A stretch of DNA of 64,000 bases from Saururus chinensis. Taxonomy: Eukaryota; Streptophyta; Magnoliopsida; Piperales; Saururaceae. The stretch lies in the NCBI GenBank assembly GCA_035235625.1, contig CP141149.1, forward strand, positions 29,505,753 through 29,569,752. The letters run 5' to 3'. The first letter of the stretch is position 1, and every line of letters begins with the position of its first letter. The position numbers were made by a program, and so were the translations under genes. The notes beneath the pieces were generated by a model that was not told the DNA's origin, did no database searches, and worked only from the letters and a program-made list of their open reading frames with translations. Shown in pieces: positions 15,829 through 64,000 of this stretch.

Positions 15829-16099
15829 TCACGTGTAACGTCCCGGATTTTATTACGATTTTTTGCTATTTTTATCTGATCATTTTCAGCGATATATTGT
15901 GACGCTTCGGCGTATTTGACTTTGGTATTCGTACCCGTAGAGCCGAGTCTCAGGTCAGTCGTGGGCTACAGGCCTCGACGTGCGCTTCTAGCGCAAAAAA
16001 TCATTGAAGATTGGAACTGCAGAGGATAAGTAAGTGAAAAGAAAAAAAAAATAGAGGAAACGGGCTCGGGCTCGGGCTCGACCGAGCCCAATCCAGAAA

Positions 16100-18280
16100 T
16101 TTCTGGAGTGAACAGTGTTTTTCCTCCGCCCCTTCTCCGGCGTCTCTCTCCCAGCCGCCGCCGGCCGCCGGTGGGCCGAAGGGCCGCCACCACCGGCTCC
16201 GCCCCAGCCGTACGACGGTAGGGGGGCCGCCGTCCCGGCCCCACAGCCGCTCCGCCGTCCACCCCGTCTCGCCCCTGTTCCGCCGGCCGACTCTGCTCTC
16301 TCTCTATTTGTGCTGTTCCGCCGCCGCCACTAGCCGGAAAGGCCTGGCTGGCCGGCTATGGTCCCGCCTTGGGCTGGCGACGACGAGAGGCCACCCCTCC
16401 CGACCCCAGTGGTCCTCTTCCGCCGCCCCGGCCTCCGCTCCGCCTCTCCCCTGTTTTTCCCGTTTCAGCCACAGTTTCTCTGTTTGGTGCTGTGGCGGCG
16501 CCGGCGATGGCCGAGGGGCTCCGTCCCGCCTCCGTCCGGCCAGCCACAGGCCGGCGACAGCAGGGCCGCCGCCCAAGCCAGCCCGTCAGCCCGGCCAGCT
16601 TCTTCCTCCTCCCCCGGTTAGCTCCCTTTTCTCACTGTGATCTGATTTGAGCCGCCGTCGTGGGCCGCCAAGGCCCAACCGGCTGGCCACGGCTCCGCCC
16701 TGGGCCGGCGACGGCGGGAGGCCATCCCTCCCGGCCCGGTGGGCCTCCGTTCCGTCGCCCCATCCTCAGATCGACCTCTACCCTGTTTTCACCGCGCACA
16801 CTGTTTTGCTCAACAGTAGCTGCCGGTGATGGCCGGCAGTGGCCAGCCGACCACCGTGGGTTCCGCCCCGGCCTGGCGACGGCCAGGGACGGCCCCCAAC
16901 CGGTCAGCTCCACCTCCACCTCCGCCCCTGTGCATTTTTCCTCCGACCAGATGCCTTCACCTCCACTGTTCCGCCGACGTTTGGTTTCGGTGGAACAAAG
17001 GCCGGCAGCCATGGACGATGGACCTCCATTGGGCTCTGCCTTGGCCAAACGACTGCCAAGCCGCCTCGTCGGCACCACCCCGGCCCGATTTGATCTGCCT
17101 CGCATCTCCCTTGTTTCTGTCTATGACAGACTTTGGGGGCTGCGCCGGCAAGAGCCAGCCTTCGGCTCGCCTCTTGCCGACCAGCCTTGGGATGACGATG
17201 GTAGGACCGCCCCTAGCTAGGTCTACCGCCCCCACAGCCGCTCCGCCTGGGCTGGTTTCCCCCGGTCGGTCCCTCTTCCCTATTTTGGTTTGAAGGGAAT
17301 TGTGGCCGCGCTGGTGGTGAGCTTATGGTCGGCCAACCTCGGCCTAGCGGCATTGGTGTAGCCACCTCCACCCAGCTCTGCCCGGTTACTAGGGCCCTGG
17401 CGTCACGGGCCAAAGCTACCAGTAAACCCCTGTTCGTCGTTGTGCCCCTAGGGTTTTCCACCCGTTATGGGCCATCGGGCATCGTTGGATGTCGAACACC
17501 CTTGGACCACCTTAGTGTGGCAGGTTTCAGCCTGGGGATGGCTGGCCGCCCTAGTGCGGCACCGCCCGTCTTCTTTCGGCATGGGCCAGGTTCCCCTCTG
17601 CCGATTGTGTCTGACCGCTCTATAGAGCGCCACATGTTGCCCTTTGACCGTCTTACCCTCGCCGGACGCCGATTGGCCTCTAGTCGGCCTGCCTCGGTAC
17701 GGCAACGGCAAAGGCCGTATTGTTGGTCACCGCCCTTGGGCATGACCCTACCGCCCTTTCGAGTCTTGGGCCGACACCGTCTAGCCCTCCCCTCTTCCCT
17801 TTGGCCGCGTGTGCAAGTAGCCGCGCGTGCGGGTTAGGGTTTAGGTGTCATTTTGACACCGCCTGACCGTCGGATGGCTCTGCCATCGTCTGTATTTGAC
17901 CATAGGAGTCCACCTCTCCTACGTCCTTGAGTGTCGCCCTCTGCCCTTATGTGGGCCCTTGTGAACGTGAAATCGACGCCGTTGGGTGCTGTCCACGGCC
18001 GATTTCGACGTCTTGTGATCGGTTTGGTATTGTTCAACCACCGGTCGAATTTTAGTGAGTACACCCTGCCTTTCGGTCGCACCTGCCACTCGTTGGCACA
18101 ATCTTTCTCTCGGCCACCCCTAGTGTGCCGCCGTGGATCACGGATTTTGCCGCGTTGATTTTGACATCCCATTTGGCCTTGTGTGCGCTTCCTAAACCTC
18201 GGGACAGCAGCTCTCTCAGCTGGGCAATGGTTTTGACCACCGACTCCGCCACCGTCGTGTGCTCACCATCAAACGTCATG
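16100..18280 (+). repeat. GC-rich degenerate module array inside LTR A1
   Basis: This block is far richer in G and C than its surroundings. It is built from loosely repeated modules of roughly 100-170 bases, each with a GCCGGCGA(C/T)GGC-type core, a CTCCCGGCCC-like stretch and a pyrimidine run ending in CCTGTTTT. The same block occurs in A2 at about 51470-53280. The many overlapping open frames on both strands follow from base composition; none resembles a known protein and no gene is called. Confidence 0.65.
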
Positions 18281-19622
18281 ATTACGAGGTAGGGGAGCTT
18301 TGAACTCGTAAATTTATGATAACATGCTTTGAATGAGTAGCAGCATGCTAGGCTTGCATGATTCTATGTTTTGGATATTAAATCATGACATGTATGCATG
18401 ATGTAAGATAGTGAATTATGCCACATTGAGGTACATGTATGTATGTATGTGAGTTGTAAGCATGGTTATGTATGTGTATGATGTATGGTGTATGCGCTAG
18501 TGATGGCTAGCGAATGTGTTAGTGTGCCACATATGTGTGTGTTGGACACGCTAGTGATGGCTAGCGATGTCGAGTAAGTTACGTATGTGGACTGTGTGGG
18601 CAGAGGTATGGGCGATGGACGGTAAGATTGGTAAGGGTTTGGTATGAAGTTGGATGTGGATTTGGACGTGTAAGCGCATGACGGAAGACAGAGAAAGTAA
18701 GTTTGAGGAGCGAGGATTTGAGATGGGTCAGATCGGTTTGGAGCGTACGTTAGGGATTCGGTAAGTAAGAAGACTGAGGCTTGGAGCCTTATGAGGGTTT
18801 ATTAGACAGTAAGAGCATGCATAATTGTACAAGCATAACGTACAAATTATGAAGTGAAAAGTAAGAATAATAAGTGAGGTATTAAGTAAGAGGATGATAA
18901 CGGGGATCAGCTGTGAGGAGCTCAGTTTGAAGATGTAAGTAAGATGTCTGACCGTAAGGTGGATGTCAGAGATTGTATGAGTATGTAAGGATTTGTGTAC
19001 GGTGAGTTATGTGTGACCTAGACGGGTAAGTGAAGTATGTTGCCCCGACGAATTAGGGTTTCGATCGGGCTCAGCTTCAGTTTGATCAGTCGAGGAGGAC
19101 TGTGAGTTGGTTTGGCATAATTGTACCGCATAATATACTTAATTCAAACTTGAATTATGAGAACGTTAATAATAGCGTTGTGAGTTTGAGACCGGAGGGT
19201 TCGACGGATTAAGTTCCGTGCTTGAGCTAGCCGATAATGAATCGGCTGAGCACTTCTTGTGTCTTGCCATGGTGGTTATCCTGCGGGATTTTTGTCTGTG
19301 TGCTATATAGAGCACCGGGCATCTGATGCTCTGTTGAGAGCGATGTATGTTTGATTTGGTCTATGTGCTGTATAAGCCCAGACGTTTGATGCTCTGTTGA
19401 GAGCGTTGTATGTTTCCGCCCAAGAGTGGCACTATACGTTTCTGCCCAAGTGGCACTGTATGTTTTCTGCCCAAGAGTGACAATGACACTATAAGACCCA
19501 TTATGGTGGGCAATTCTCTGGCACTATAAGACCCATTATGGTGGGCAAGTCTATGGCACTATAAGACCCCTTATGTGTGGGCAATTGTATGACCCCTTGT
19601 GTGGGTGTATGTTTGCGCGCTC

Positions 19623-19654
19623 AGGTAAGTAGTATCATGGATCTACTCTTACCT
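19623..19654 (+). other. Predicted RNA/DNA hairpin in LTR A1
   Basis: AGGTAAGTAG (19623-19632) pairs with CTAC and TTACCT (19643-19646, 19649-19654) across a 10-base loop reading TATCATGGAT, with a 2-base bulge on the 3' side. The same stem exists in A2 (54919-54950), and a sequence-diverged counterpart lies in LTR D (60790-60819). It sits just upstream of a shared GCCCCATGAGCA block. Function unknown; it could be a structured part of the transcribed LTR. Confidence 0.5.
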
Positions 19655-20708
19655 ATTTGATCCAGTGCCCCATGAGCATTGGTGTACCTTACCTTCGGAA
19701 AAGTCCATGGCGTCTAGTCACTCCCCGGAGGTTAAGGTGATGCCCCAGTGGCATTCTTTTCCTTTTCGACGTTGGAGCTTATTAGCTGTAATGAGCTTCA
19801 GTGGTCGATAGTATGTATACGACTGTATGACTGAGTTTGTGCGTTTCTGAGTAAGCGTGTGATGATGAGTATGTGCACGACTGTAAGATTGAGGATGAGT
19901 ACTACTGTAAGAGTGTGAGTTTGAGCACGACTGTAAGTATTTGAATATGAGTTCGACAGTAAGTGTAAGACTGTACGAGTAAGGGTAAGATTGTACGAGT
20001 AAGGTCGTACAAGTTGAGTAAGTTGTATGAGTTAGCGTTTGTTGGGATGAGTATGTTTGTAAGACCCTGATTAAGGGTGTTTGTATGAGTTTGGTTTCAT
20101 GGTATGTTATGCATGATTAGTTGGATATGAGCATAATTGTTATACGTTGTTTGCCTCATGTTGAGTTGCATGACGCATATTTTATGAACTTATTGAGTTC
20201 ACCGTTTGGGATTTCCCCTACTGGGTATTTTCCTACTGAGTATAAAAATACTCACCCTACTTCTTTTAGCCCCGTTGTTCGAGAGGCTTTTGCAGGTTGT
20301 GTTGGTGAGCTCCTGGAGTTGGATGCTCGTCTCTGCTGTGGATTGTTTCCCCCTCGACTCAAGTATATTTGGTGCCACGATCTGATGTATTTGATGAGAG
20401 TTAAGTGTATGTATTCTGGACTTTTAATTTGGATCAGAGTAGACTGTTTATGGGACTTGTACTCGGGGACACCTGGGAGTTATTTGTATTTAAAAATCCA
20501 TGATCATGGTGATTTAATCGTACGTATGTTTTCGAGTAGCGCCTAAGGATATTTGATTTGACGGTACGATGTTTAACCGTATCATGTTTAAAATTATAAA
20601 CTGTTTATACGGGTTTTGATTTTATCATTTGACTCCGATTTATCGTATAAAAAAAATTTCTATGAGTTTTAAGAAAAAAGGATGAAAAATCTCGGGCGTT
20701 ACATCACG

Positions 20709-27348: not shown

Positions 27349-29149
27349 TGTAACGACCGCCAATACTATCGGAGTGCACCTAAGCTCAAGCTGTGACAAA
27401 ATAATAACAAATATTTTGCAATAACATATATTTTGCAAGAGATAAAGAATTAAGTCTGAAACATAAACAACCTTCTTACTAAACTTTTATTGAATCAAAT
27501 AACATGAGTTTCACCCAAGGGGTGTTCATCTGCAGCTACAAAATAGCTACTAATGCTCAAAGAAATTAAAATAATCCTGATTCCCTCTGTTATCTCTATG
27601 TCCATTATCTCTATCCTTTCTTGACTTTTTTACGCATCCAAATCTGTAAACAAACCTGCGTGTAAAAATACGCCGGGTGAAACGAACATTCCACCCATAA
27701 GCCAAAGCTCTGTGATCATACCTCAACAGAACATGTCTTGTAATGTAGCATTCACCGATTATACAACGACAATGATTCATATTCAAACTCAGCATGACAT
27801 ATCTATATAAAATCAACATATATACATGACCATTTTAATTCAACATTCATATAATCATTCATCGTATCATAAGTTTGCATAATCACCATATACCTCGTAA
27901 AACATAATACACACACAACCTATTCCCTATATCACATAGAGAATTTAGCTATGTGATCTGTGGGTTGCATCAGTGTGAAAACGCAGTGGGTGGTCATACG
28001 CGTGCACTCGTAATGACCCGCAAAAACTAGAAGGGAACTGTCAAAGGCTGGGGTCCACCCTCATCTCTACATGGCACCTGGGTAAAATTATTATATTATT
28101 TCTAAAGTTAAGGTCCTATACCCTGACCTTAACTCCCCTTGTTCAACCTTTCACTCTTAGGTTGATTCTTAATTCATGTTCTACCATTTATGCAAGATGT
28201 TCCTTTCACGTACCCATAAGAAGAGAAAACATATTTTGTGCAATTCAACTAAAAACAACTACTCTTATGATTCACCCATAATGTCTATTTAACTCATCAA
28301 CTTGTCATAACATAAACATGTACTATGTAACTATAATTGGTATTTGACCCAATTCATCACAACCTGCATAGAGTAGCAATTATATATACACATATCTATA
28401 TCAACCATCAACATTTAGCATCTCTCTTGAGTATGACCTGTAACGTTTTATAATTAAATCACAACTTTGTAATAGTCACACAATTTCTCATCATACATCC
28501 TCCAACCTCATCTTGTATATGTCACGCCCCGGCGATGCCCGACCCGAGCCGAACCCGGTCCAAGGGCCGGTCAAGCACGCGGGGGCGACGAAGTGAAGAT
28601 TGAGAAACGATCTAGCGGAAGACTTAACCCTAACCACGGGCGATTAACAGAAATACGGAGTACGTACAATCCTTTGAGCAAGAGTAAATAAAAGGGAAGA
28701 AAGAGTGTTGTTTATCACAAAGTAAACAACTAATCTCAAACCCACATGCTTAGTTAAGTAAAGCCCACACCGGCTCAAAATAAGTCATAAGCATCACAAC
28801 TATAAAATGTGACATAAATCCAAAACAAAGAACCCTACACAAAGGTTCTAACATAAACATGAAACCAAAGAAGATAAGTCACACAACGATCTCCATGATC
28901 ATATCCAAGCCATCTCCGACCTTTCTTCAAAGAGGAGATCATGTTCGTCTGCGTGTCGCACCACGCAGCCCTAAATCAAAACACAAGAAACAGGGGTGAG
29001 TTTAACAAACTCAACAATGGTTTTTAATATCACTAGCAACATTGAAAATACAATAGCATAGAAATATAGTCATTTAGATCAAAGATTTACATGATGCATC
29101 ATTTTCTGATCACACATACATATCTCCTAACACTGCATCATGGTGCATA

Positions 29150-29760
29150 ATCAACCTGCATGGATGTATCTCTAACATACATATTCCCACATGCATTATA
29201 TCATAACAATTTGCATGGATGTACCTCTAACATACATATTCCCACATACATTATATCATAACGACCTGCATGGATGCATCTCTAACATACATATTCCCAC
29301 ATGCATTATATCATAACAATTTGCATGGATGTATCTCTAACATACATATTCCCACATACATTATATCATAACGACCTGCATGGATGCATCTCTAACATAC
29401 ATATTCCCACATACATTATATCATAACAATTTGCATGGATGTATCTCTAACATACATATTCTCACATGCATTATATCATAACGACCTGCATGGATGTATC
29501 TCTAACATACATATTCCCACATGCATCATATCATAATCAACCTGCATGGATGTATCTCTAACATACATATTCCCACATGCATTATATCATAACAATTTGC
29601 ATGGATGTATCTCTAACATACATATTCCCACATGCATTATATCATAATGACCTGCATGAATGTATCTCTAACATACATATTCCCACATGCATCATATCAT
29701 AATCAACCTGCATGGATGTATTTCTAACATACATATTCCCACGTGCATCATATCAAAGTC
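29150..29760. repeat. Minisatellite in LTR B1, about 11 units of 55-56 bp
   Basis: The unit contains GCATGGATGTATCTCTAACA followed by a CATATTCCCACATGCATTA-like stretch. It recurs about every 55-56 bases from about 29155 to 29755. Units alternate between an ACCTGCATGG and a TTTGCATGG start, hinting at growth by a two-unit (about 110 bp) step. The equivalent part of B2 (about 50640-50860) is not amplified. Confidence 0.85.
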
Positions 29761-40509: not shown

Positions 40510-42266
40510 TGTAACGCCCCAACCAGGATTACTCGACCCAGACTGGGGGTTAGTTTGGAAGACAGAATCGGAGTGTATTAAATAAAGTAGAAAAATTAAA
40601 ATCGACTGACTAGGAGCTGTAGACTCTGAGTGCGAGAGTCATAATGTTCATCCATGCACTGCGGAGTTTTAATATTCCGTTGTGCGTAAATAAGAACAAA
40701 CGTAATTTTATAACTAATTTGGATCGGGCCAACGTTATTTAATCGTTGGTTGCCTACGTATATATTGAATATCATCTCTGGCGTTATTCCAATACGATCA
40801 GATCCGAGAGTAGTTTTGCCTAACGGCTACTACATTCATCAGACATCAGAAAGTCATATACGATAAAATATGTATACTTTATATCTGAATAATTAATTAA
40901 AAATTAGATAAAAATCTTATAAATAATCAGAGTCAAACGGAAGTCAGTAAAACAGTGAAATACACATCTCACGTAGTTGAGCAAAATCACACATTCCAAT
41001 CTATCATAGAGCAGAGCAGAACACATAACAAAGCATATTGGATTATATCAGATCCCATCTGATAATATCAGATTTCATCCAACCATACTGATCACATCAG
41101 ATCAGATCGGAGTATATCATATCGCAATAGAGCATTTTAGTGCAATTCGGATCACCATAGAATATATCAAAGTCGATCGAAGAGAAACATATAAGCATAT
41201 ATCATACCATAACAAAATATATATCTTAATTAGTACGTTACTAATTAAGATACGCATGCATATAACTTTTTTAAATTAGAAGATCAGAAAAGTGTACTCC
41301 CCTGTAGTTTCAGAAGTGATGACATTCAAAGTTGCTCGTTTCCTTAGAGCATCTTTCCTTTTAGGTCCGAAGATGGTGGGCAGAACCTCCTCTAACTCCG
41401 TAATACTTTCTCTTTCCGTGCTTGTTTTGCGCCCATAGGCAGCAGATAGAACTTTTCCTTGCCCTGGTATGTTTCCCTTATATAGCATTGCTAACTCGAA
41501 GAATAGACACTTCCATTGCGTAGAACACTCTCGAATTAGTTAAGAACGCTTTTTGAACGGAAGGAAACGGACGTAGAATGATTCTAGAAACTCCTCCGGA
41601 AGAATGAACTGAAATAACTATTTATAATGGATGGCATGCGAGCGAACAGGAGAACGTGGAATACGTGCGCACGTGCTTGCACCACGTGGCGCATTTTAAT
41701 TGGGCTGAAATGAGGGTCAGTGCTTGTGATGCGCGTGTCACACGTGTGCGTGGACGCGCGGCGTAGCGCAATCAACCGCGTGATCGCGCAGGACCCGCAT
41801 CACGCGAACGGCTGCAATTGTGCAACGCGGTCGCGGCTCGGCTTCGGCTCTGACACGGCTCAGCTCGGCTCGGCTAGCTATTTTGTCCTTTCTTGAATAT
41901 TTTATTATTATTTCATTCAAATACAATTCCAACTTCAAAACATAATAACTTTTTATCCCGAAGTTGGAATTGTACGATATTAGTACCGATGAACTTGTAT
42001 CGATGAGCCCTTCAAAATTAGACCCCCACATGGGTAGGTTATCTCATACTTTTAAAGTGGGTTCCGCTCATATGACAAGCTTCCTGAGGTCGTAACTTTC
42101 GTTCCTGACCTCTGTTTTGAGTGTTCTTGGATGCGTTGTGCTCATTACTTCGAACTCTAACCAAATATGAGAATTTCAACTCTTAAAACCCTTAAAAATT
42201 TAACTGAAATTATATAATTACCCCTAACCCTATGAGGTTAAGCGTAATCGGAACACGGGGTGTAAT
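40510..42266 (-). mobile_element. LTR-like unit C, related to D and E (1.76 kb)
   Basis: The plus-strand left edge is TGTAACGCCCC and the right edge is CACGGGGTGTAAT, with GGTAAA on both sides (40504-40509 and 42267-42272). It is oriented minus: read that way, bases around 42055-41940 match LTR D at 59973-60055 (GGGCTCATCGATACAAGT and CATCGGTACTA...CGTACAATTCCAA). A second block with GCGTTCTTAACTAA matches D at about 60451-60464. No gag-pol is seen, so it is a solo LTR or short non-autonomous retroelement. A 6-bp duplication is unusual for this class; the last base may be misplaced. Confidence 0.65.
41619..41626 (-). promoter_or_regulatory. TATA box of LTR C (TATAAATA)
   Basis: On the minus strand TATAAATA lies downstream of a GC-rich, palindrome-rich stretch (about 41640-41870), the same order as in LTR D. 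This is the expected place for an LTR promoter. Assigned by position and sequence only. Confidence 0.45.
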
Positions 42267-50052: not shown

Positions 50053-53000
50053 ATTTCTATCACGCCCTAGTGCTGCCCGACCCGAGCCGAACCCGGTCCA
50101 AGGGCCGGTCAAGCGCGCGGGGGCGACGAGGGGAAGTTGAGAAACGGTTTAGCGGAAGACTTAACCCTAAATACGGGTGATCTAACAGAATTACGGAGTA
50201 CGCACATTCCTTTGAGCAAGAGTAAATAAGTAGAATAGAAAGAGAGTCGTTTAACTCAAAATAAATGACTAGTCTCAAACCCACATGCTTAGTCAACCAT
50301 AGCCCACTCTGGCTCAAAAATAGGTCTTAGACAACACAACTGTATAAAGCAACATAAATCCCACAGAGAACCATACACAAAGGTTCTAAACAAAATAGCA
50401 TAAACAAGGGAAACAATCCACAAAAGAAAGGTCTCCACGATCACATCCATGTCATCTCCGATCTTTCCTCAAAGAGGAGATCCTGTCCATCTGCGTGTTG
50501 CGCCAAGCAAAACACAATAAAGAGGGGTGAGTTTAAAAAAACTCAGCAATGGTTTTCTACTATACTATCAGCATCGGCAACACGATGACATAACAATATA
50601 ATCATTTAAATCAAAGATTGACAAGATGTAACATTTTCTGATCATACATACACATCACCTAAACCTGCATCATAATGTAAAATCCACATAGTGCCATTCA
50701 CATCATATCAAACTGCATGAAATGTATCTCAAACACACCATTTCTGATCATGCATTCATATCACATAAACTACATTCACCCTACACGACAAACGTGTCAA
50801 CCACATGATACACAATCATGCATAGCATTCATAATAGACATGCATCAATACAAATGGTGAATGCCTCCATCAAGGAGTAAACACAAGCATTGCCACACAG
50901 GAAAGAACACGGTCAAGGCCACGAAGGCGTGTTATGGTCCAAAATTCTACACAAGAATTTAAGAAGGTTGGGGTTGTCAATCCTAATTGCTGCTTGCCCC
51001 AGACGATCCTAGCCAAGGATGTCACATTCTCACGAAGAGAACCTAGAGCAGGGGTGTTCGTTTTGGGACATCTCCTGTGATGGGGAAGAGCCCGGTTGCC
51101 ACGTAGGAAACCCACGAACACATGGTAGCTGGTGCAAAGAGCATACCATACTGGATTCTCAGTGTAAGGTCCTTGATTTTTCTACGATTTTCTGGGATTT
51201 TCCTGCTATTTTTTTGGCCATTTTCGGCAGGAAAATGTGACATTTCAACGTATGTATATTTGTATATTTTCCCCCTATTTATACCCGTAGAGTCGGGTGT
51301 GGGGCTTAGTCGCGGGCCGCGGGCCTCGCCGTGCGCTTACGGTGCGAGTTTTGGACTAATAACGCATAAACAGGACGTACGCGTGCATTGGGGACGTAAG
51401 TGGGAAAAAAAAGTGCACACAATAAAACATCGGGCTCGGCCCGATCCGGATTTTGTATGAACAGTACCACCGCCCCCCCTTTCCGTCGGTCCCTCGTGCC
51501 CGGCCGCCGCCGGACGCCAGTGGGCCAGAGGGCCGCCGCACCGGCTCCGCCCCGGCCGTGCGACAGCAGGGGAGCCGCCGTCCCGGCCCCATGGCCGCTC
51601 CGCCGTCCGCCCCTATTTTTCCCGGTTAGCCGCCCCTCACTGTCTTTTTTTGATTCCGCCGCCGCCGTGAGCCGGCGAGGACCGGCCGGCCGCCCACGGC
51701 TCCGCCATGGGCCGGCGATGGCGGGAGGACACTCCCCCCGGCCCTGGACGGCCTCTGCTCCGCCGTCCAGCTCCGTTTTCCCCACTGCCCCTGTTTGTCG
51801 CCCCCTTTGTATCATGCCGTTCTGCCGCCACGGGCCAGCACGGCCCGACCGGCCGGCCACGGCTCCTCCTTGGGCCGGCGACGGCGAGGAGCCACTCCTC
51901 CCGGCCCGGTGGGCCACTGCACCGCCGCCCCATCCTATTTCCCCCTCTCTGTACTGTTCCGCCGACGCACTATTTTGGGCAAACAGTGGCCGCCGGCGGT
52001 GATTTGTGGCCGATTCGGCCTTCCTCCAGCCTCGCCTTGCTCCGGCGAAGGCAGTAGACCACCCTACCCAGCCCGGTTCCATCCCCTCTGCCGTCCTATG
52101 CTCCGCCCAGTCCGATTTGCGCGGTACTGTGGGTGGATTTTCCAGTGGGCTGGCACCGCCATCGTTGGTGGGTGAGGGTGACTTGACCACCGTGGGCTCC
52201 GCCCCGGTCTTGGGACAGCCCCACCCAGACCGGTTCAGCCTTCGCCCCCTCCGTATCTCCCTTGCTCAGTCCGGGCGTCCCCTATTTTTGGTCTATGTCC
52301 ATTTTGGACGTTGTGATTGACGTTATCAGTCGGACGCTGGATTTGATTTAGCGGACCTTAGTTCGGCTCCGCCCCGACCCGGTGATGCCAATGGGCCACC
52401 CCTCTGGGTCTTGTTCAGCCTTGCGGTCCGTAGCCGCAGCTAGTTCCGCCTTACCGGCATATGTGATGTTGACCCTTATTGCCATTTTACGCCGTCGGTA
52501 CCGGACGGCCTCTGGCAAGAGTTTGTATGACTTACCCTGACAGAAGGTGGACAAGTTCACCTGCATAGGCCTTGGCCAGTGACGGCCTCATGGCCTTTGC
52601 TCGACTGTGATCCTCCCCTTGCTCTCTATCGTGCGAGATGCACAGCCGCCCGCACCATGGGTATTGGTTGTGGGTGGCGATCGGCGGTGTCGCCGCTTAG
52701 ATTGGCCACCGCTAGGGCCTTAGCCCTGTTGGCTTTTGTGGGCCTTGGGTCATCTCCGTTTAGCCCTCTCCCCCGCCCTTTGGGCCGTGTGCGCATGTAG
52801 CCACGCGTGTACTTCTGGGTTTAGGCGCCGCATTCGTGCCGCCTGACCATCGGTTGGCTTTGCCACCGAGTGGAGTTGACCACTAGAGCTGTCCTCCACC
52901 TCTCCTTTATTCTCGAGCATTGCCCCACGCTCTCTACCCGTATGTGGGCTTTTATTGACCGAAATCGTCGCCGTTGGGTGCCGTCCACGGCCGATTTCGA

Positions 53001-53490
53001 CGTCGTGTGGCCGGCTGAGCACGTTTTAGCCACCGGCCGATCTTTAGAGTGTACACCCTCGACCTATGGTTGCACCGCCACATATGTTGGCTTGACTTTT
53101 CTCCCGGCCGCCCTAGGGTGCCGCCGTGGATCGCGGGTTTTGCCGCATTGATATCTGACACCGTGTTTGGCCGTGATAGTTCCAACGCTTCCTAAAACCC
53201 TCGGGATAGCAGCTCTCTCAGCCAGGCAGTGGTTTTGACCGCCAACTCCACCGCCGACGCTGCCACCGTCGGGTGCTCGCCATCAAACGTCATGATTACG
53301 AGGTAGGGGAGCTTTGAACTCGTAATTCATGAAGCATGCTTTGAATGAGTAGCAGCATGCTAGGATTGTATGATTTCATGCTTGGATGTTAAGTAACGAT
53401 CCGATTGCATGATGTGCGTGTAAGCATGATTGTATGGTATGATTGATATGCATGAGATGTATGCACGTTTTATGGATATGGATTATGTAT

Positions 53491-53705
53491 GTGCTAGCGA
53501 TGGCTAGCAAATATGTCAGTATGCTATGTATGGATTATGCATGTGCTAGTGATGGCTAGCGTGCATGTTTGAAGTATGTATGAATGTGTGTGCATGTGCT
53601 AGAGATGACTAGCGTGTACGTTTGATGTATGCATGTGCTAGTGATGGCTAGCGTGCATGTTTGACATGTGTATGCATGTGCTAGTGATGGCTAGCATGCA
53701 TGTTT
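53491..53705 (+). repeat. Five GCTAG...CTAGC units in LTR A2
   Basis: The word GTGCTAGTGATGGCTAGC or a close variant occurs five times with irregular spacing of about 40-55 bases; A1 has only two (near 18495 and 18547). Each unit is itself a small inverted repeat (GCTAG, six-base loop, CTAGC), and the stem is kept even where the loop changes (AGATGA instead of TGATGG). Confidence 0.8.
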
Positions 53706-54454
53706 GTAAGTTACGTATGTATGACTGTGTGTATGTTATACGTATGTGTGAGACATACGTATGTATGATGACTATTGCTTATGATATGGTTATGTGTAAG
53801 TGTATGTGGGCAGAAGTATGTGCGATGGACAGTAAGAGGTGGCAGAGGCTTTGTCTGAATTTGGATACGGTTGTGTAAGTGTATGACAGAGGACATAAGA
53901 TAAGAGTATGACGGGCAAGGATTAGAATGGATCAGTTTGGGGTGGATTGTATGTTGGGCGATTGTCAGACAGTAAGAGTGTTCATAATTGTACAAGCATA
54001 ACGTACAGATTATGAAGTAAAAAGTAAGTATAATAAGTGAGATATAAGTAAGAGGGTGACAACTGGGTTGGCTCTGAGGAGCATTATTTGAGGATGTCAG
54101 TGTAAGAGGATTTGGCCAGAAGATGGATGGCGAAGTGTAAGACTGTAAGGGTTTGGCATACGATGAGTTTTGTCCATGATGTGGACGGGTAAGTGAAGTC
54201 TGCTGCCCTGACGAACTTGGGTTTCGGATCTGGCTCAGCTTCAGTTCGATCAGTCGAGGACTGTGAGTTTGTGTGGCATAATTGTACCACATAATATACT
54301 TAATTCAAACTTGAATTATAAGCACAACTAATGATAGCGTTGTGAGTTTGAGACCTGAGGGTTCGACGGATTAAGTTCCGTGTTTGAGCTGGCTGCTAGT
54401 GAGTCGGCCGAGCTTTTATCATGTCTTGCCATGGTGTTTATCCTGTGAGATGTT

Positions 54455-54712
54455 GTCTGTGTGCTGTATAGAGCACCGGACGTCTGATGCTCTGCTGAGA
54501 GCGACGTTGTTTCTGATTTGGTCTGTGTGCTGTATAAGCCTAGACGTTTGATGCTTTGTTGAGAGCGATGTACGTTTCTGACTTTGTCTGCGTGCTGTAT
54601 GAAGCCCAGACGTCTGATGCTCTGCTGAGAGCGACGTATGTTTCTGATTTGGTCTATGTGCTGTGTAAGCCCAGACGTTTGATGCTCTGTTGAGAGCGTT
54701 GTATGATTCTGC
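54455..54712 (+). repeat. Four tandem units of about 62 bp in LTR A2
   Basis: Each unit has TCTGTGTGCTGTAT, AGACGTTTGATGCTCTG and TGAGAGCGATGT words. A1 has two such units (about 19295-19415). It is followed in both LTRs by three units of GGCACTATAAGACCCATTAT. Copy number differs between sister LTRs, while the order of blocks is unchanged. Confidence 0.8.
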
Positions 54713-54918
54713 CCAAGAGTGGCACTGTATGTTTCTGCCCAAGTGGCACTGTATGTTTTCTGCCCAAGAGTGGCATTGGCACTATAAGACCCATTATGGT
54801 GGGCAATTCTCTAGCACTATAAGACCCATTATGGTGGGCGATTCTATGGCACTATAAGACCTATTATGGTGGGCAACTGTATGACCCCTTATGTGTGGGT
54901 GTTTATGTTTGCGCGCTC

Positions 54919-54950
54919 AGGTAAGTAGTATCATAGATCTACTCTTACCT
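54919..54950 (+). other. Predicted hairpin in LTR A2
   Basis: This is the counterpart of the A1 hairpin at 19623-19654: the stem AGGTAAGTAG with CTAC and TTACCT is unchanged, and the loop differs by one base (TATCATAGAT). It again stands just before the GCCCCATGAGCA block. Confidence 0.5.
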
Positions 54951-57900
54951 ATTTGATCCAGTGCCCCATGAGCATTGGTGTGCCTTACCTTCGGAAAAGT
55001 CCATGGCGTCTAGTCACTCCCCGGAGGTTAAGGTGTTGCCCCAGTGGCATTCTTTTCTTTTTCGACGTTGGAGCCTATTAGTCGTAATGAGCTTCAGTGG
55101 TCGTTGATATGTGTACGATTATGTGTATGAGTGTGAGTACGACTGTATGTGTATGAGCAGGATTGTAAGAGTATGTATGAGCAGGACTGTAAGAGTATGT
55201 ATGAGCAGGACTGTAAGAGTGTGTATGAGCACGACTGTAAGAGTATGTGGAGGAGCACGACTGTAAGAGTATGGGTACGATTGTGAGAATATGTTTCTGA
55301 GTAAGACAGTAAGTATGATTTTGTGCAGACTGTACAAGTGAGGTCGTACGAGTCTGATTGTACGAGTAAGGTCGTACATGTATGTGTAAGCTGTGTGAGT
55401 GAGCATACAATTGTACGAATAAGGTCGTACAAGTATGTGTATGTTGTATGAGTATGCGTACGGTGGTACGAGTAAGTTGTATGACCCTGGATAAGGGTGT
55501 TTGTGTAAGTTGATTTGATATTTTGATTTTGGCACGATGGTGCCTTTGGTATGTCTGTGGCACGATGGTGCCTTTGATATGATCGTATGTGTATGTGCAC
55601 GATATGATTATATTATGTTGACTGCTTCATGTTTGAGTTGCATGACGCATGCATTTACGAACTTATGGAGTTCATCGTTTGGGATTTCCCCTACTGGGTA
55701 TTTTCCTACTGAGTATGAAAATACTCATTACCCTACTTTTTAGCCCCGTTGTACGGGAGGTTTTGCAGGTTGTGCAGAGAACTCATGGTGATGGACGCTC
55801 GTTTCAGCGGTGGATTGATTCCCGTTGACTCAGGTATCTGCTTGACTCTCTACGAGTTTATTTGTGCCACGATCTCCTGTATTGGGTGAGACGAGACATC
55901 ATGATGTTTATTCTAGACTTTCATTTGGATGAGTCTGTGGACTGTTTTTGGACTTGTACTCAGGGATGCCTGGGAGGGATTTGTATTTAAAAGTCTATGA
56001 TCATAGCAATTTATTCGTACATGTGTTTTCGAGTAGCGCCTGAGGATATTTGATTTGACAGTACGATGTTTAACCGTATGATGTTTTAAATTATAAACTG
56101 TTTATACAGGTTTTGATTTTTGTCGTTTTGACTCCGATTTATGGAAAAAAAATCTATGAGTTTTAAGAAAAAGGGATGAAAAATCTCGGGCGTTACACTC
56201 AAGGTCCAGATGACAATAATAATCTCAATCGCAAGACAAGTACGCAACTCGTCCCTTATATAATTCCACTTAACTAGACTCAACCCGGGGCGTGCACATG
56301 TTCCACACAAGAACTCAAATCGAAAACATGTCCTTTCGGACCAACCAAGTTTCGATTAATTCACTAAGCGATTAATCTAGCAAGCAATCTCAACCATCCT
56401 ATACAATTGATCAATTCCGATTAACCAACGGTAAAACCTCGTTCATGAAGTCCGATCCATGATGCATGATGTCATGATATTAAGCCAAACATAAACCATG
56501 AATTCCATTTACAAGACTGAACCCAACTCAGAGTGTGCACGTAAAAATACCTCTATGTCGACTCTAGTCCTCACGTCCCATACCATGAGTATTCGTGACG
56601 CCATAGAAGCAAATTTAACTAAGCACTAGTGCAACGAACCTTAGAGCTATCCATCGACAAAATGCGTCCCATACCACAAGTGTCTAATGGTTTCTCCTTG
56701 GCTGTTCTACACAGGACTAAATCGAAAACATGTACTTTCAGACCAACCAAGTTTCGATTAATTCAACGAGCAATTAATCTGGCACGCAATTTCACCACAT
56801 TACATCCAATCGATCAAATTTGACTAATCTCTATAAAGCCTCAATTGGAAATCTATTTTCATGATACATGCAACATGGTACATACGTGGGCAAGGCATAC
56901 CTGAATCCTAATTCATGATAAGTGCTCTCATCAGCCCCTCATGCATCATTCATAATCATAATATCAATCCTCATCATCATCATTAAACCCCACATGTGTG
57001 TGTACCTAGTAGAAGCACTTCACTCAATGCATATCAACATGTTTGAAATTAACTCACTACCACACTACACATGTGAATTAACATCTAATCATGAATTCCA
57101 GCGGAAATCATAGGAGAAGAATCATTGAAAATCATAACTCAAATCAAAGCTTAACTACAAGCTAACCACATATAAGATCATTCACTTCATACTTGAGTCA
57201 AGACATAACACTAACATTCACACATCAATTAACCACATCTTAACATGACATATTAGCCCATTAGTATGTTATAGCTCTACTAAAAATATACCTAACCATA
57301 GAAAATCAACCATTCATAACTTCAAGATGGTAATTCCAACATCATATAACCAACCACAAACCATTCCACATAACTTTAAATATATATACCACAACTTCTA
57401 ACATCAATATAATATTCTTCAAGTAGCTTATTATAGATCAAAACACTCCACATAAACATAAAAATGATATTTTGAAGTAGATATGTCGAAGTAAGCAACA
57501 TACATAAAATTGTCAAATCCTGTAGTGTAGCCGTTTTAACGCCCTACAGGGCCGTTCGATCGACTAAACAGGAAAAATGTCAAAACTGTAGTGTTGCCGT
57601 TCGAACGCCCTCAGGGTCGTTCTAACGCCAACAAAGCAGTTTTGGTCATCTTCTTCATTTCAATTTTTCAAACCAAAACTCCATTGATAAAACTCAAAAT
57701 CACCATCTAACAACCTAAATGCCATTAAAAGTCCACCATAACTTCCAGAATGCTAATCCACATCATGACAAGATAAAACCTTATGAAATCGGGATTAAAG
57801 ATTACTATTTACTAATCATGTCATTAAAGCACTAAATCAAGTAATTCCATTCAAAACAAACCACAAAATCAAGAGTTTTACTATAGGAAGACTGAAAATT

Positions 57901-58734
57901 TGAAAGTTCATTACCTTATCCCTTGATTAGGCTTAGGTTTGATGGTCACCCTTCTTGAAAACCTTACAAAGACATAGAGTTTGAATTAAACTCCATTAAA
58001 ACCGATTTAACATAGAAAACCCTAATCAAAAACTTAGATCTAGGGATTGTTGAACATAAAAATCGGATTTTTAGAGCTAGGGTTTGAAGTAAAGATGCAA
58101 ATTAGTAGTTTTGATATTTAAAAATAAATCAAAACAAAGGGGAAATGGTAGATCTAGAAGTGATTAAGGGAAAGGCTAGGATTTAGGGCTTAATTAGAAG
58201 GGACTTACCTTAAACACTTTCTAATCCGGGCCTAATTGGGGATTAGACCTAACCTCTCATTCTCAGCCTATTCCTAAAATGGGAAATGGCTTAGGTCTGG
58301 CCTTTTATAGTAGGTTTTGGGGTGTGCATGGGTAAATTGTGGGGTATGAATAGATAAATAGGTTAAAAATGGGTAATTTAGCTATTTGAGCACTAATAAA
58401 ACCTGAAAAAATTATGAAAATTTTTATAAGAGCTTTTGTTGATGTCTGGGTTAATTTGGTCTAAAAACCCAAATTTCAATAGTGGGGCCCACAGGTGGTC
58501 CCGCCAAACCCTAATTTTTGGAAAAATAGTAAAAATTAAAAAAAATCCCAAAAATTCACATTTGATTCAAAATCACTTAAAATCAGTATATGTAAAGTTG
58601 ATTTTGATTAAAACTATAAGAAACACCATCTATCTTTGAAACCACTGAATAAATCAGAAAACGTGTTAACCTCACGATAACTGATAATTAAAGTGAAACG
58701 AAAACCGGTTTAAGATTAGAGATCTTACAATTTC

Positions 58735-59544: not shown

Positions 59545-60163
59545 TCGAGCATGGTGATTTCGTATGACAATCTAGCAAATGAAGACGAGGTCCTTACCCT
59601 CTCAACAATGTCAATTCCTTTCTAAGTGAAAGATAAATCATATGAACCTAGCTAAAAGTGTGATTGACAAAAAAAAGCCTAACTAAAAATGTAAACTTTC
59701 TTGAAAAAATTACCAACCACACAACGTCATTGCAGAGAGGGCACTATTGAGGGTCAATGTGTGACAACCCAGATTTGAGGTAAGTTATGCTTTTGGAATT
59801 TTTATATATTATTAGAGCATTATTTTGAATGTGGAACCTTAATGAATGTTGTAGAACTCTAGAAACCGAACTTAAAGGTTTTTGAAACACTTGATTCGGA
59901 GGTAGTGGCCGTATGTAGCGATCGTGGAAGCGCTCATCTTAAGCGGGCATACGATGAAACTACGGTAAAACCTATCCTTGAGTGGTCTTGTTTCAAAGGG
60001 CTCGTCGATATGAGTCCATCGGTACCAAGAACGTACAATTCCAATATATAGGTAAAAAGAAAAAAAAAATATAATATTTTAATGTAGGCTGATGCAAGCA
60101 TTGTGTCAGCCTCACGTTGACTGCGTGACGCGCGATGTGGCACTGCGCTATTTGTGGAGTGCG

Positions 60164-60280
60164 GCGGGCCCGCGGGTCCACGCCGCGCGGGGATCCGCAT
60201 AGCGAGCAGATCTGTGTGGCCCGTAGCGCGGGCCACGCATGCGGACCGTGCGGTCCGCGCGACACGCGGAACCGCGTGTC
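60164..60280. other. Run of four perfect inverted repeats upstream of the LTR D promoter
   Basis: In 117 bases there are GCGGGCCCGC (60164-60173), GTGGCCCG/CGGGCCAC with a five-base loop (60216-60236), GCGGACCG/CGGTCCGC with a two-base spacer (60241-60258) and GACACGCGG/CCGCGTGTC with a two-base spacer (60261-60280). All stems are perfect, although CpG-rich sequence normally decays fast in plant repeats. They stand about 65-180 bases before the TATA box. LTR C has a similar GC- and palindrome-rich stretch in the same place. They may be protein-binding sites or a structural element. Confidence 0.6.
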
Positions 60281-60343
60281 ATGCGCCGTAGCACTGCGCG
60301 AACCCGCGCAACACGCATCGCGTGTCAGTTCCGCCCCAATCCC

Positions 60344-60350
60344 TATATAT
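60344..60350 (+). promoter_or_regulatory. TATA box of LTR D (TATATAT)
   Basis: CCCTATATATACCCC stands right after the GC-rich palindromic region and before an A/T-C-rich leader, the standard U3/R layout. The counterpart in LTR C is TATAAATA at 41626-41619. No test of activity is possible from sequence. Confidence 0.5.
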
Positions 60351-60789
60351 ACCCCATTTTTTCTACTTCACTATTCACTTCTACCTCTAGTAAAAACTTC
60401 TGAATCTCCATTCTGAACTGTTTTAAGTTCGATTCAACCCGTTTCAAAGGCGTTCTTAACTAAAGCGATAGTGCCGGATGCTGTGATGGGACCGAATTTT
60501 CTATATCAGCTCTCTACGACTGCGAACTTTTTACTCCGACCGTAAGGTAGGGGATCTTAAACTCTAGCTTATGCTATGCTTATATGCTCTAGTTTTTATG
60601 CGCGGTTTTATTTCGTTATGCTCATATGCTTGAGTTTTCTGAGAAATGTCATACGCATGATATGTTTTACATACCCTGAATTTTTGTGAGGGTATTTACG
60701 TTTTCCGAATAATTTTGGGGTTAAACCTTGAATTATAATATTTCTGGATACCTACCGAGGAAATGATCGGTATCTGGCGCGCGCATATA

Positions 60790-60819
60790 GGTATGGAGTA
60801 TCATGGGAAAACTCCTGCC
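60790..60819 (+). other. Predicted hairpin in LTR D
   Basis: GGTA-T-GGAGT (60790-60799) pairs with ACTCC-TGCC (60811-60819) around an 11-base loop ATCATGGGAAA, with one G-T pair and one bulged base. Loop and position match the hairpins of LTR A, while most of the stem bases differ. Confidence 0.45.
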
Positions 60820-61480
60820 TTCTAAGCTTCCTGTTGCCCCATGAGCACCGGAGGAACGCTGTTCGGTATCACGGCTCTGGATTTATCGTCATTAGACGAA
60901 TCGGTGGTTTCTGAAATTATTTCTAAAAAAATAAAATTATTATAATCTTTTGCTTAGCATGAAATTAGATTTTAATTCCACCTACTGATTATAAAAATAC
61001 TCACCCACCCACAGACTCTACAGGTAGTAAAATCAACACGGAGGGGTCAACCGAAGGATTATCTATTTAGTCTCTCTTAAATATTTTCTACCTCTGTAAT
61101 AATATATTTTTGGCATGTATGTTGAAATTCTATAATATGACTGCTCTACATGCAGTATATTCTGGACAAGGTCCTACTTTCCTGTTATGCTATATGTAAT
61201 ATTTTAATTGTGTATCAACTCCAAAATTTTTACGCCAACTTATTTTATGTCGATATTTTTTTGTAATCCGTACGATGGACCGTCACGTTCGGTTTCACGT
61301 GCGATGTAACACATGCCGAGTGAGATAATAATTATGCAAAATATGACGTATATTATTTTCTGACGATCGCCACACAATGAAACCATTGGGGGGTAGAGGG
61401 AAGACCGATGAATAGGGGTTTGTGACAATGGGCAGTAGCCTTGGAGGCTTGTTCAACAACTATGTATCCTCCAAGGGCTT

Positions 61481-62864: not shown

Positions 62865-64000
62865 TGTAATGGCCCAAAATTTTAATGTTTTAAAATTCAA
62901 GCGTTTGTGCCCATAACGAGTTTTAAGGCCTAGTAATAGTTTTTTAAAAAAATTATCTATTTTGAGCTTTATTCGCTTGGAGGACCCCTAGGATATTTGA
63001 TAGGGCTCGGACAGACGAACGTATTGAGCCTAAGAACGTGTCAAAATAATACCGGGATAGTAGGCTATGACCTCGAGAAACGTGTTATGGGTGGGACCCA
63101 CATTGCTTTTGCGAGAAAACATACCCTTATGTAGTCTTGTTTCAAAGGGTTTGTTGATACAAGCCCAATGGTACTAAGAACACGCGATTTCGAGCGCCTG
63201 GTAAAAAGTTATGTCAAATTAAAGTTTTACTTTTCATTTATATTAAAAACAAAAATTAAAAAAAAATATTTGCATAGAGTTGGCACAATGGCTGATGTGT
63301 CAGACACAACCACTTAAAGCAGCAGGGTAAAGTGCCACATTGCGGTTGTTCAACTACTACAATGCGGCATTTAATTTTTGTCGCGTCAAGGCTAGCCTGC
63401 AGGAACCGGAATACCGGATGTGCGACATGTGTCACAAATCCGGAGGCCTTTTCAGCCTACAAAAGGAGAGGGATGGGGGAGGTTCAACTTGCCCCATCCC
63501 TTCCTTTTTTCCTTTCCTTTGTGTAACACGCATTTTTAAGGCTTAAACATACATTTCTTCACCGTTTCTCATCCATTTCTACCCATTTAAAAACCTATCC
63601 TACCTACTTTGAGAGTGCCCGACGTCATGAGAGGATCCATTTTTCGAGTTAGCAATTCTAAAAGGTAAGAACAACCCAGGGCAAGAGGAGACCCTATCCG
63701 CCACTCTCGGGCCGGAAGCAATGACTGTCTCAGCATTAAGGGAGGTTCTACCTGCCTCACTCGAGCAGGATGAGGAGATTATCCTAGATCTAGGGGAGTT
63801 TTTGCTTGCCTCACTGAAGTTGAAAAATGAAATCTTCTCTCAGCACGAGGGGAGGTTTTGTCCGCTACTCCTAAGCCCATGAACGAGACAAGGATTCGAC
63901 TGCCGGCCGTTACCTCGATCAATTTCAAGAACAAAGGGTAGGTGGTTTTAAGCTCTAATTCCGTGCTACGACTGGGCATTCTATTTCATAATTTATTCGT
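62865..64000 (+). mobile_element. LTR-like unit E, related to C and D, cut by the window end
   Basis: The left edge is TGTAATGGCCCAAAATTTT. Bases 63133-63205 match LTR D (GTCTTGTTTCAAAGGG, GGTACTAAGAACACG), and AGAGTGCCCGACGTCATG with TTCGAGTTAGCAAT near 63611-63656 match LTR C. The right edge lies beyond the window, so neither full length nor target duplication can be judged. Bases 63680-63960 contain loose repeats of a GGGAGGTTCTACCTGCCTCA-like unit. Confidence 0.6.

What the first reader, a model, noticed from the sequence alone, without database searches (positions are those of the whole stretch)
19623..19654. Hairpin kept between two different LTR families (A and D) by changed stem bases
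In A the loop ATCATGG sits on a stem AGGTAA-GTAG/CTAC-TTACCT; in D the same loop core sits on GGTA-GGAGT/ACTCC-TGCC. Both are followed within about 15-20 bases by GCCCCATGAGCA. The loop and downstream block are conserved, while the stem differs on both sides with pairing kept. That is the pattern expected of a functional RNA structure in the transcribed LTR.
Basis: inference. Interest (0 to 1): 0.7.

Follow-up and report, generated by a model that had tools for sequence, protein, structure and literature searches.

The report
Kissing hairpins in plant retrotransposon LTRs
Thousands of mobile-element copies in this plant-like genome carry the same small fold, in which two neighbouring hairpins have matching loops; it has kept its shape while its letters changed, so it is probably a working part of the element's RNA, perhaps for pairing or packaging that RNA.

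Summary
The hairpin (19623-19654) and its counterpart in LTR D (60789-60820) are real. In the held genome (516 Mb) TGCCCCATGAGCA occurs 5379 times, 3970 times with ATCATGG 20-50 nt upstream. I sorted 115 fetched copies by hand into 12 LTR families. Swapping HP1 stem arms between families weakens pairing (-10.1 to -6.8 kcal/mol; 0 of 1000 permutations as good). RNAalifold picks exactly these seven pairs. Families E and F7b carry TCGTGGG/CCCACGA, a two-sided change that keeps pairing. GCGCGC, a further hairpin and a GATACC/GGTATC pairing, less well supported, may complete a ~130-nt domain. Best reading: a kissing-loop RNA domain in the LTRs of Ty3/gypsy chromovirus-like elements, working like the Ty1 kissing loops thought to start RNA dimerization and packaging. 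HP1 and the loop contact are well supported; the function is inferred. An unguided tree-aware covariation scan had no pair at E<0.05; strand tests were inconclusive.

The parts
15834..20703 (+). Solo LTR of family A (copy A1), TGTAAC...GTTACA, target duplication TCACG
51163..56197 (+). Solo LTR of family A (copy A2), target duplication CTCAG/CTCAA; an unoccupied homologue of the insertion site lies near 30064
59760..61374 (+). Solo LTR of family D, target duplication CAATG
19592..19606 (+). Upstream hairpin HP0 of copy A1 (ACCC/GGGT), weak, seen by eye
   Evidence: HP0 is not significant by energy
19615..19620 (+). GCGCGC palindrome, copy A1
19623..19654 (+). Hairpin HP1 of copy A1: AGGTAAG-T-AGT [ATCATGGATCT] ACT-CTTACCT
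19635..19640 (+). HP1 loop bases TCATGG, complementary to CCATGA at 19670-19675
19662..19682 (+). Hairpin HP2 of copy A1: CCAGTGC [CCCATGA] GCATTGG
   Evidence: in the swap test the HP2 flanks of family A are not better than swapped
54911..54916 (+). GCGCGC palindrome, copy A2
54919..54950 (+). HP1 of copy A2; loop ATCATAG, one kissing pair lost
54962..54974 (+). HP2 core TGC[CCCATGA]GCA, copy A2
60747..60752 (+). GATACC, complementary to GGTATC at 60865-60870
60777..60782 (+). GCGCGC palindrome, LTR D
60789..60820 (+). HP1 of LTR D: AGGTA-T-GGAGT [ATCATGGGAAA] ACTCC-TGCCT
60801..60807 (+). HP1 loop bases TCATGGG, complementary to CCCATGA at 60838-60844
60835..60847 (+). HP2 core TGC[CCCATGA]GCA, LTR D
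60858..60875 (+). HP3 of LTR D: GCTG [TTCGGTATCA] CGGC, loop holds GGTATC
62865..64000 (+). Probable start of a third related LTR (family E); its copy of the domain lies beyond the window (L147:1008-1150) and is decayed in the block

Best explanation
A conserved RNA domain of about 130 nt lies in the LTRs of Ty3/gypsy chromovirus-like elements of this genome. Shown by sequence comparison: hairpin HP1 shows an 11-nt loop with TCATGGG; the downstream block holds CCCATGA between TGC and GCA, which can close a 7-nt loop (HP2); the two loops are complementary over 6-7 bases in the 12 families seen; and HP1 arms match within families better than between them. Less firmly shown: more HP2 pairs in some families, a further hairpin HP3 whose loop GGTATC matches an upstream GATACC (ten families tested), and a GCGCGC palindrome about 18-23 nt upstream of the loop. 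Inferred: the domain forms in the 5' leader of the full-length RNA. The HP1-HP2 kissing contact, within one RNA or between two, starts dimerization and marks the RNA for packaging by Gag, as proposed for the complementary 7-nt motifs of two hairpins in yeast Ty1; GCGCGC may add a self-complementary contact between two RNAs. That last step is a functional guess by analogy.
For: Number: 5379 exact 13-mers, reversed pattern 0 (the reversed pattern holds two CpG and is a lenient control; base composition alone predicts about 5, my arithmetic); 3970 with the loop upstream, against 40 stretches reported in the 257 billion bases of prokaryote contigs. HP1 arms: native -10.14 against swapped -6.84 kcal/mol, 0 of 1000 permutations; 9 of 9 counted pairs with two-sided changes. 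Loop-block: RNAalifold on a MAFFT alignment returns just these 7 pairs; 98.8% of cells paired. Pair A4-T8: the two-sided pattern finds 121 copies, of which 94 of the 100 listed are G-C, in E-like and F7b copies, separate clades on the tree; one-sided copies are 87 G.T and 54 A.C. Pair G6-C6: 45 of 58 two-sided copies are A-T, 22 of them F4-like by hand sorting. Outer pairing 1 of 2000 permutations, HP3 17 of 2000, HP2 flanks 17 of 1000. GCGCGC, allowing C to T and G to A decay, in 92 of 115 copies against 8.8% of shuffles. A family D element (L086): gag, protease, RT, RNase H, integrase and a sub-threshold chromodomain; a TATA-like CTATATATACC about 430 nt before HP1. Ty1 precedent: PMC5454406, abstract and section 3.4.
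Against: No functional data. The unguided covariation scan found no pair at E<0.05. Gains over swapped arms are uneven: HP1 none in F5a and F5b and little in F7; HP2 flanks clear only in D, F6, F7 and F7b, and worse than swapped in A, E1, E2, F3, F5a and F5b; outer pairing worse than swapped in E1, E2, F3 and F5b; HP3 worse in F5b. At copy level the G6-C6 association (odds ratio 4.35) is only a little above a non-partner control, G6 with C5 (3.01), so most copy-level variation is decay. Doubles at G7-C5 are 17 scattered copies with no family-level state. Strand tests disagree: A4-T8 87 G.U against 54 A.C, G6-C6 135 against 304; all helices 59 against 49. Invariance of the block is partly by construction, since nearly all copies were found through it, and the five copies with two-sided loop-block changes were picked by two-sided patterns. 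HP0 is not significant by energy. Outer and HP3 tests leave out families A and F4. Transcription start and poly(A) site are unknown.
Confidence: 0.45

Rival explanations
1. The same fold serves export of unspliced RNA from the nucleus, as the MusD transport element does in mice through a pseudoknot and kissing loop, or as the structured leader of a plant pararetrovirus does.
For: Same kind of architecture; a review names the MusD element with pseudoknot and kissing loop and the CaMV leader that recruits export factors (PMC12786077, passages).
Against: Nothing here links the domain to export; no shared sequence was tested.
Confidence: 0.2
2. The domain controls translation of a long leader, for example as an internal entry or shunt structure, or as a start codon shown in a loop (ATCATGG has a good start context, recalled).
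For: AUG stands in loop and block of most copies fetched. In element L086 the first long frame opens about 1.1 kb after the 5' LTR.
Against: Many E and F7b copies have ATCGTGG and CACGAG, so the AUG is lost while pairing is kept. The short frames that begin at the loop differ in length and peptide between families (read by eye).
Confidence: 0.15
3. A DNA-level element: a protein binds TCATGGG...CCCATGA as an inverted repeat in the LTR.
For: The two motifs form an inverted repeat; the strand tests do not prove RNA.
Against: HP1 arms with different letters keep pairing, and spacing between the motifs varies between families, which a DNA-binding site would not explain easily.
Confidence: 0.1
4. 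A 5' splice site lies in the 5' arm (CAG|GTAAGT in family A) and the hairpin hides or shows it.
For: Perfect donor consensus (recalled) in family A at 19622-19630; family D has a weaker AG|GTATG.
Against: Other families have no such donor there: F3 GGAGTTGGGG, F4 GGGTAGAG, E GAAGTTGG.
Confidence: 0.05
5. Conservation by common descent only, with no function.
For: The window copies are solo LTRs; copy-level changes look largely neutral; the blind scan is not significant.
Against: Loop and block stay while the stems around them change on both sides.
Confidence: 0.05

Closest known systems
Ty1 TIPIRT domain kissing loops (SL1a/SL3a, Saccharomyces cerevisiae; PMC5454406)
   Same: Two hairpins of the element's own RNA with complementary 7-nt apical motifs; a second long-range pairing nearby.
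   Different: Ty1 is a copia-type element (recalled); other sequences, the two motifs lie about 270 nt apart (19/25 and 293/299), and function there was tested by mutation.
Ty3 dimerization site PAL6 (PMC11381356, passages) and retroviral dimer initiation hairpins (HIV-1 recalled)
   Same: Leader hairpin loops that pair; here a GC-rich palindrome GCGCGC lies next to the hairpins.
   Different: Those loops are self-complementary; here the two loops are different and complementary, and GCGCGC is not shown to be in a loop.
MusD transport element (PMC12786077, passages)
   Same: Pseudoknot and kissing loop in the RNA of an LTR element.
   Different: No sequence relation tested; role in export not tested here.
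Del/Tekay chromoviruses of plants (PMC4029996, passages and section 14)
   Same: The family D element has a chromovirus-like domain set; family A ends with GGG at -8 to -10 and G at -6, the type A U5 end of that paper.
   Different: The words hairpin, secondary structure and packaging do not occur in that paper's main text; D has GAT (window copy) or GGT (L086) at -10 to -8.

Membership tests
Ty1-type kissing-loop dimerization domain (works like) | Two hairpins with complementary motifs of about 7 nt in their loops | tested here: met
   TCATGGG/CCCATGA, 98.8% of cells paired in 24 copies of 12 families; A-T to G-C in E and F7b. HP2 stem beyond TGC/GCA clear only in some families
Ty1-type kissing-loop dimerization domain (works like) | Lies in the 5' terminal region of the genomic RNA | tested here: inconclusive
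   About 430 nt downstream of a TATA-like box in element L086; no transcript data
Ty1-type kissing-loop dimerization domain (works like) | Pairing is needed for dimerization and packaging | not testable with these tools
   needs RNA experiments
Retroviral dimer initiation site | Self-complementary hairpin loop | tested here: not met
   The HP1 and HP2 loops are complementary to each other, not palindromic over 6 bases; GCGCGC is palindromic but not shown in a loop
Ty3/gypsy element (family D) | Order protease, RT, RNase H, integrase | tested here: met
   L086 frames: RVP_2, RVT_1, RT_RNaseH, Integrase_H2C2, rve in that order; rve, 28.1 bits, is under its Pfam cut-off of 32.6
Chromovirus (family D) | Chromodomain after the integrase | tested here: inconclusive
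   Chromo at residues 734-779 of the second frame, E 0.00068, 19.9 bits against a cut-off of 25.1
Del/Tekay lineage | Position in a tree of RT-RNase H | not tested
   no reference elements were at hand
Any Rfam family, including hammerhead ribozymes of retrozymes | Match at gathering score | tested here: not met
   0 matches in the window

The most novel reading that the evidence does not exclude
Chromovirus-like LTR retrotransposons of this plant-like genome share one compact leader RNA with two tertiary contacts (HP1 loop to HP2 loop, HP3 loop to the 5' strand) plus a GCGCGC palindrome. It acts as a switch between a translated and a dimeric, packaged form of the RNA, and would be a cis-acting packaging signal for plant Ty3/gypsy elements that can be found by sequence alone.
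Probability: 0.3. Interest if true: 0.75.

Novelty: new variant of a known kind. Interest (0 to 1): 0.62.

Why it matters
LTR retrotransposons make up much of many plant genomes. In the passages I saw of a 2025 review, the structured RNA signals named belong to mouse elements and a plant pararetrovirus, and packaging in plants is discussed for a barley copia element with two RNA pools; no packaging signal of a plant Ty3/gypsy element appears there (PMC12786077). A covarying domain present in thousands of copies gives a defined piece of RNA of about 130-150 nt that can be tested by probing, dimerization and Gag-binding assays, and a motif pair (ATCRTGG ... TGCCCCAYGAGCA) that can be looked for in other plants. 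It also offers a handle for finding and orienting long solo LTRs.

Tried and rejected
Single-sequence folding energy as proof: rejected, z -0.94 and +0.64. Rfam: no family in the window. The same two-part pattern outside the genome: 1 viral contig and 40 prokaryotic stretches, taken as chance in far larger collections, not followed up. Autonomous copy of family A: the stretch L087 between two A motifs held copia-type fragments (Pol_BBD, gag_pre-integrs, rve), so it gives nothing on A's own genes. Tree-aware unguided covariation scan: no pair at E<0.05. Strand test by G.U against A.C: inconclusive. Tree-based counts for loop-block pairs are biased because copies were fetched by patterns that fix or doubly change those positions; the same holds in part, so the whole-genome counts carry more weight. 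Copy-level G6-C6 association: mostly decay, since the non-partner control has odds ratio 3.01 against 4.35. Pair G7-C5: no family-level change. Conserved start codon: rejected, lost in many E and F7b copies. Conserved splice donor: perfect only in family A. Literature: in eight search listings (two returned no paper) no listed title or abstract start describes this domain; I opened the outline with abstract and section 16 (headed 3.4) of PMC5454406, passages and section 14 of PMC4029996, and passages of PMC3601003, PMC11381356 and PMC12786077. That it is not in print is claimed only within those searches.

Full report
What was given. A hairpin at 19623-19654 in an LTR called A, with a counterpart in an LTR called D, loop and a downstream 12-mer kept while the stem differs on both sides.

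The observation. The two motifs together occur 3 times in the window and never in 100 shuffles. The LTRs are A1 15834-20703, A2 51163-56197 and D 59760-61374, each with a 5-bp target duplication, 4 of 5 letters matching for A2. A2 is inserted in a sequence whose unoccupied homologue lies near 30064. A and D gave no match to each other in the self-comparison at the cut-offs used. The window lies in a held genome of 516,460,831 bases in 11 contigs.

How common. TGCCCCATGAGCA: 2672 + 2707 = 5379 exact matches, 0 for the pattern read backwards. The backwards pattern holds two CpG, so it is a lenient control; base composition alone predicts about 5 (my arithmetic). With ATCATGG 20-50 nt upstream: 1975 + 1995 = 3970; with a following base other than A, 431, by eye mostly families other than A in the 100 listed. 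In the 257 billion bases of prokaryote contigs the same two-part pattern was reported in 40 stretches.

Families. I fetched copies from the listed places, mainly contigs C1 and C2, plus 20 chosen for two-sided changes. From these, 115 distinct copies with 88 bases before and 42 after the block were kept; copies whose flanks ran off the fetched stretch, or that lacked a loop or block the script could recognise, were dropped and not counted. I sorted them by hand into 12 families: A 44, F4 18, D 11, F3 10, E2 7, F7b 6, E1 4, F5b 4, F7 4, F5a 3, F6 3, F8 1.

HP1. Families differ in stem: A AGGTAAGTAGT/ACTCTTACCT, D AGGTATGGAGT/ACTCCTGCCT, F4 GGGTAGAGAGT/ACTCTCTACTC, F6 GGAGC/GCTCC, F7b GTAGAGC/GCTCTG, E ATGAAG..GGAT/ATCC..CTTCAT, around an 11-nt loop ATCATGGGAAA or close to it. 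Pairing 5' arms with 3' arms of other families (up to 8 native and 4 swapped copies a family) costs 3.3 kcal/mol on average; no permutation of 1000 equals the native set; in 6 of 12 families the native 3' arm is the best partner; F5a and F5b are no better than swapped and F7 hardly so.

The loop and the block pair. TCATGGG in the HP1 loop is the reverse complement of CCCATGA in the block. RNAalifold, run on a MAFFT alignment of 24 copies from the 12 families, returns these seven pairs and nothing else, with four copies A-U to G-C and one G-C to A-U. Those five copies had been picked by two-sided patterns, so one search shows that the pairing is the best common helix, not how often it changes. 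CCCATGA can be the loop of HP2, closed by TGC/GCA and in some families by more pairs, such as CCCTCG/CGAGGG in F7b. The swap test for the HP2 flanks gives 17 of 1000, with a clear gain only in D, F6, F7 and F7b and a loss in A, E1, E2, F3, F5a and F5b. I read the contact as two kissing hairpins; an ordinary H-type pseudoknot without HP2 is the alternative.

Compensation genome-wide (gap 21-48 unless said). Pair A4-T8: A-T 3970 (gap 20-50); both changed 121, of which 94 of 100 listed are G-C; G.T 87; A.C 54. In that listing the G-C copies are E-like, apart from 6 of F7b type. On a tree of 72 copies E and F7b are separate clades, though nodes near F7b have low support (0.22, 0.61). By eye, F7b-type copies number 6 G-C (100 of 121 listed), 21 G.T (all 87 listed) and 1 A.C (all 54 listed), the order expected if the wobble is tolerated; these copies are not independent. 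Pair G6-C6: A.C 304, G.T 135, two-sided 58 with 45 A-T. The partner odds ratio is 4.35 against 3.01 for the non-partner control G6 with C5 (15 two-sided, 65 one-sided). By hand sorting, 26 of the 45 are non-A copies, 22 of them F4-like, against 1 of 15 in the control. So one F4 subfamily looks compensated, while the A copies show only decay. Pair G7-C5: 17 two-sided copies scattered over families.

Further parts. GATACC upstream matches GGTATC in the loop of HP3 (GATGCCC with GGGTGTC or GGGTATC in F7 and F7b, GATACT with AGTATC in several F3): 1 of 2000 permutations over ten families without A and F4, better than swapped in D, F5a, F6, F7, F7b and F8, worse in E1, E2, F3 and F5b; HP3 stem GCCG/CGGC or GTCG/CGAC: 17 of 2000, worse than swapped only in F5b. 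That script found no upstream element in 2 of 53 copies and plainly misread 2 F3 copies, which I left in. GCGCGC: exact in 48 of 115 upstream stretches, allowing decay in 92 of 115 against 8.8% of shuffles; few in E1 (1 of 4) and F3 (4 of 10); best matches mostly 18-23 nt before the loop. HP0, a hairpin upstream of it, is visible in most families but not significant by energy. Counted together on the 24-copy alignment, 33 pairs: 84.1% of cells pair (41-48% when slid), 66 cells with two-sided changes against 32 in shuffles, covariation 0.278 against 0.201, 0 of 500 shuffles for these three; but pairs with two-sided changes, 18 against 15.5, and further pair types, 38 against 41.6, do not exceed shuffles.

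Results against. The unguided scan of all column pairs on 72 copies with a tree-based null found none at E<0.05; four had E<1, only one of them mostly complementary and that one outside the model; two HP1 pairs had E 3.7 and 4.6, one loop-block pair E 13. G.U cells are 59 and A.C cells 49, so strand is not settled. Nearly all copies were found by the block, so its invariance is partly by construction; copies A1, A2 and D of the window and E (L147) were not. In L147 the loop TCATGGG is intact but the block has decayed to TGCCTCACGAGGA.

The element. Stretch L086 holds a family D element with two LTRs (98.8% and 96.4% alike over the two aligned pieces), gag, protease, RT, RNase H and integrase domains, an SH3-like domain and a chromodomain under its cut-off, a TATA-like box about 430 nt before HP1 and a TGTTATCGGAGC stretch after the 5' LTR that resembles a methionine-tRNA primer site (resemblance recalled). 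Family A ends with GGGCGTTACA, which fits the type A U5 end described for Del elements (section 14 of PMC4029996); D ends differently. No A element with its own genes was found.

Mechanism. Shown: a paired architecture, above all HP1 and the loop-block contact, kept through changed letters. Inferred: it forms in the leader RNA. Guessed by analogy: it starts dimerization and packaging. In Ty1 two hairpins with complementary 7-nt motifs are needed for retrotransposition, and restoring the match partly restores it (PMC5454406, abstract and section 3.4). For Ty3 a GC-rich palindrome in a 5' hairpin is proposed as the dimerization site (PMC11381356, passages). The strongest rival is nuclear export, for which a mouse element uses a pseudoknot and a kissing loop (PMC12786077, passages).

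Verdict. Observation confirmed, interpretation supported and extended: a new variant of a known kind, the kissing-loop leader structures of retroelements, in plant-like chromovirus-like LTRs. Function open.

Noticed in passing
29146-29755: Eleven head-to-tail copies of a 55-bp unit (period 166 as a triple), inside a sequence that has a second, 77-81% similar copy split by LTR A2 at 50060-51162 and 56198-58729.
   Followed up: no
44934-45292: Six copies of a 60-bp unit.
   Followed up: no
16123-16766 and 51470-51936: GC-rich stretch near the 5' end of both A LTRs, perhaps like the CpG islands described for Del LTRs.
   Followed up: no
40510-41700, minus strand: End of another LTR-like sequence (...GGGGCGTTACA) that shares an 89-nt stretch (72%) with family E upstream, but shows no loop and block motifs.
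   Followed up: partly
19622-19630: CAGGTAAGT, a perfect splice donor (recalled consensus) in the 5' arm of family A.
   Followed up: partly
19290-19591 and 54453-54899: Short tandem units (63-66, 24-26 and 35 bp), the 35-bp ones with repeated CTATAAG boxes, just upstream of the domain in LTR A.
   Followed up: no
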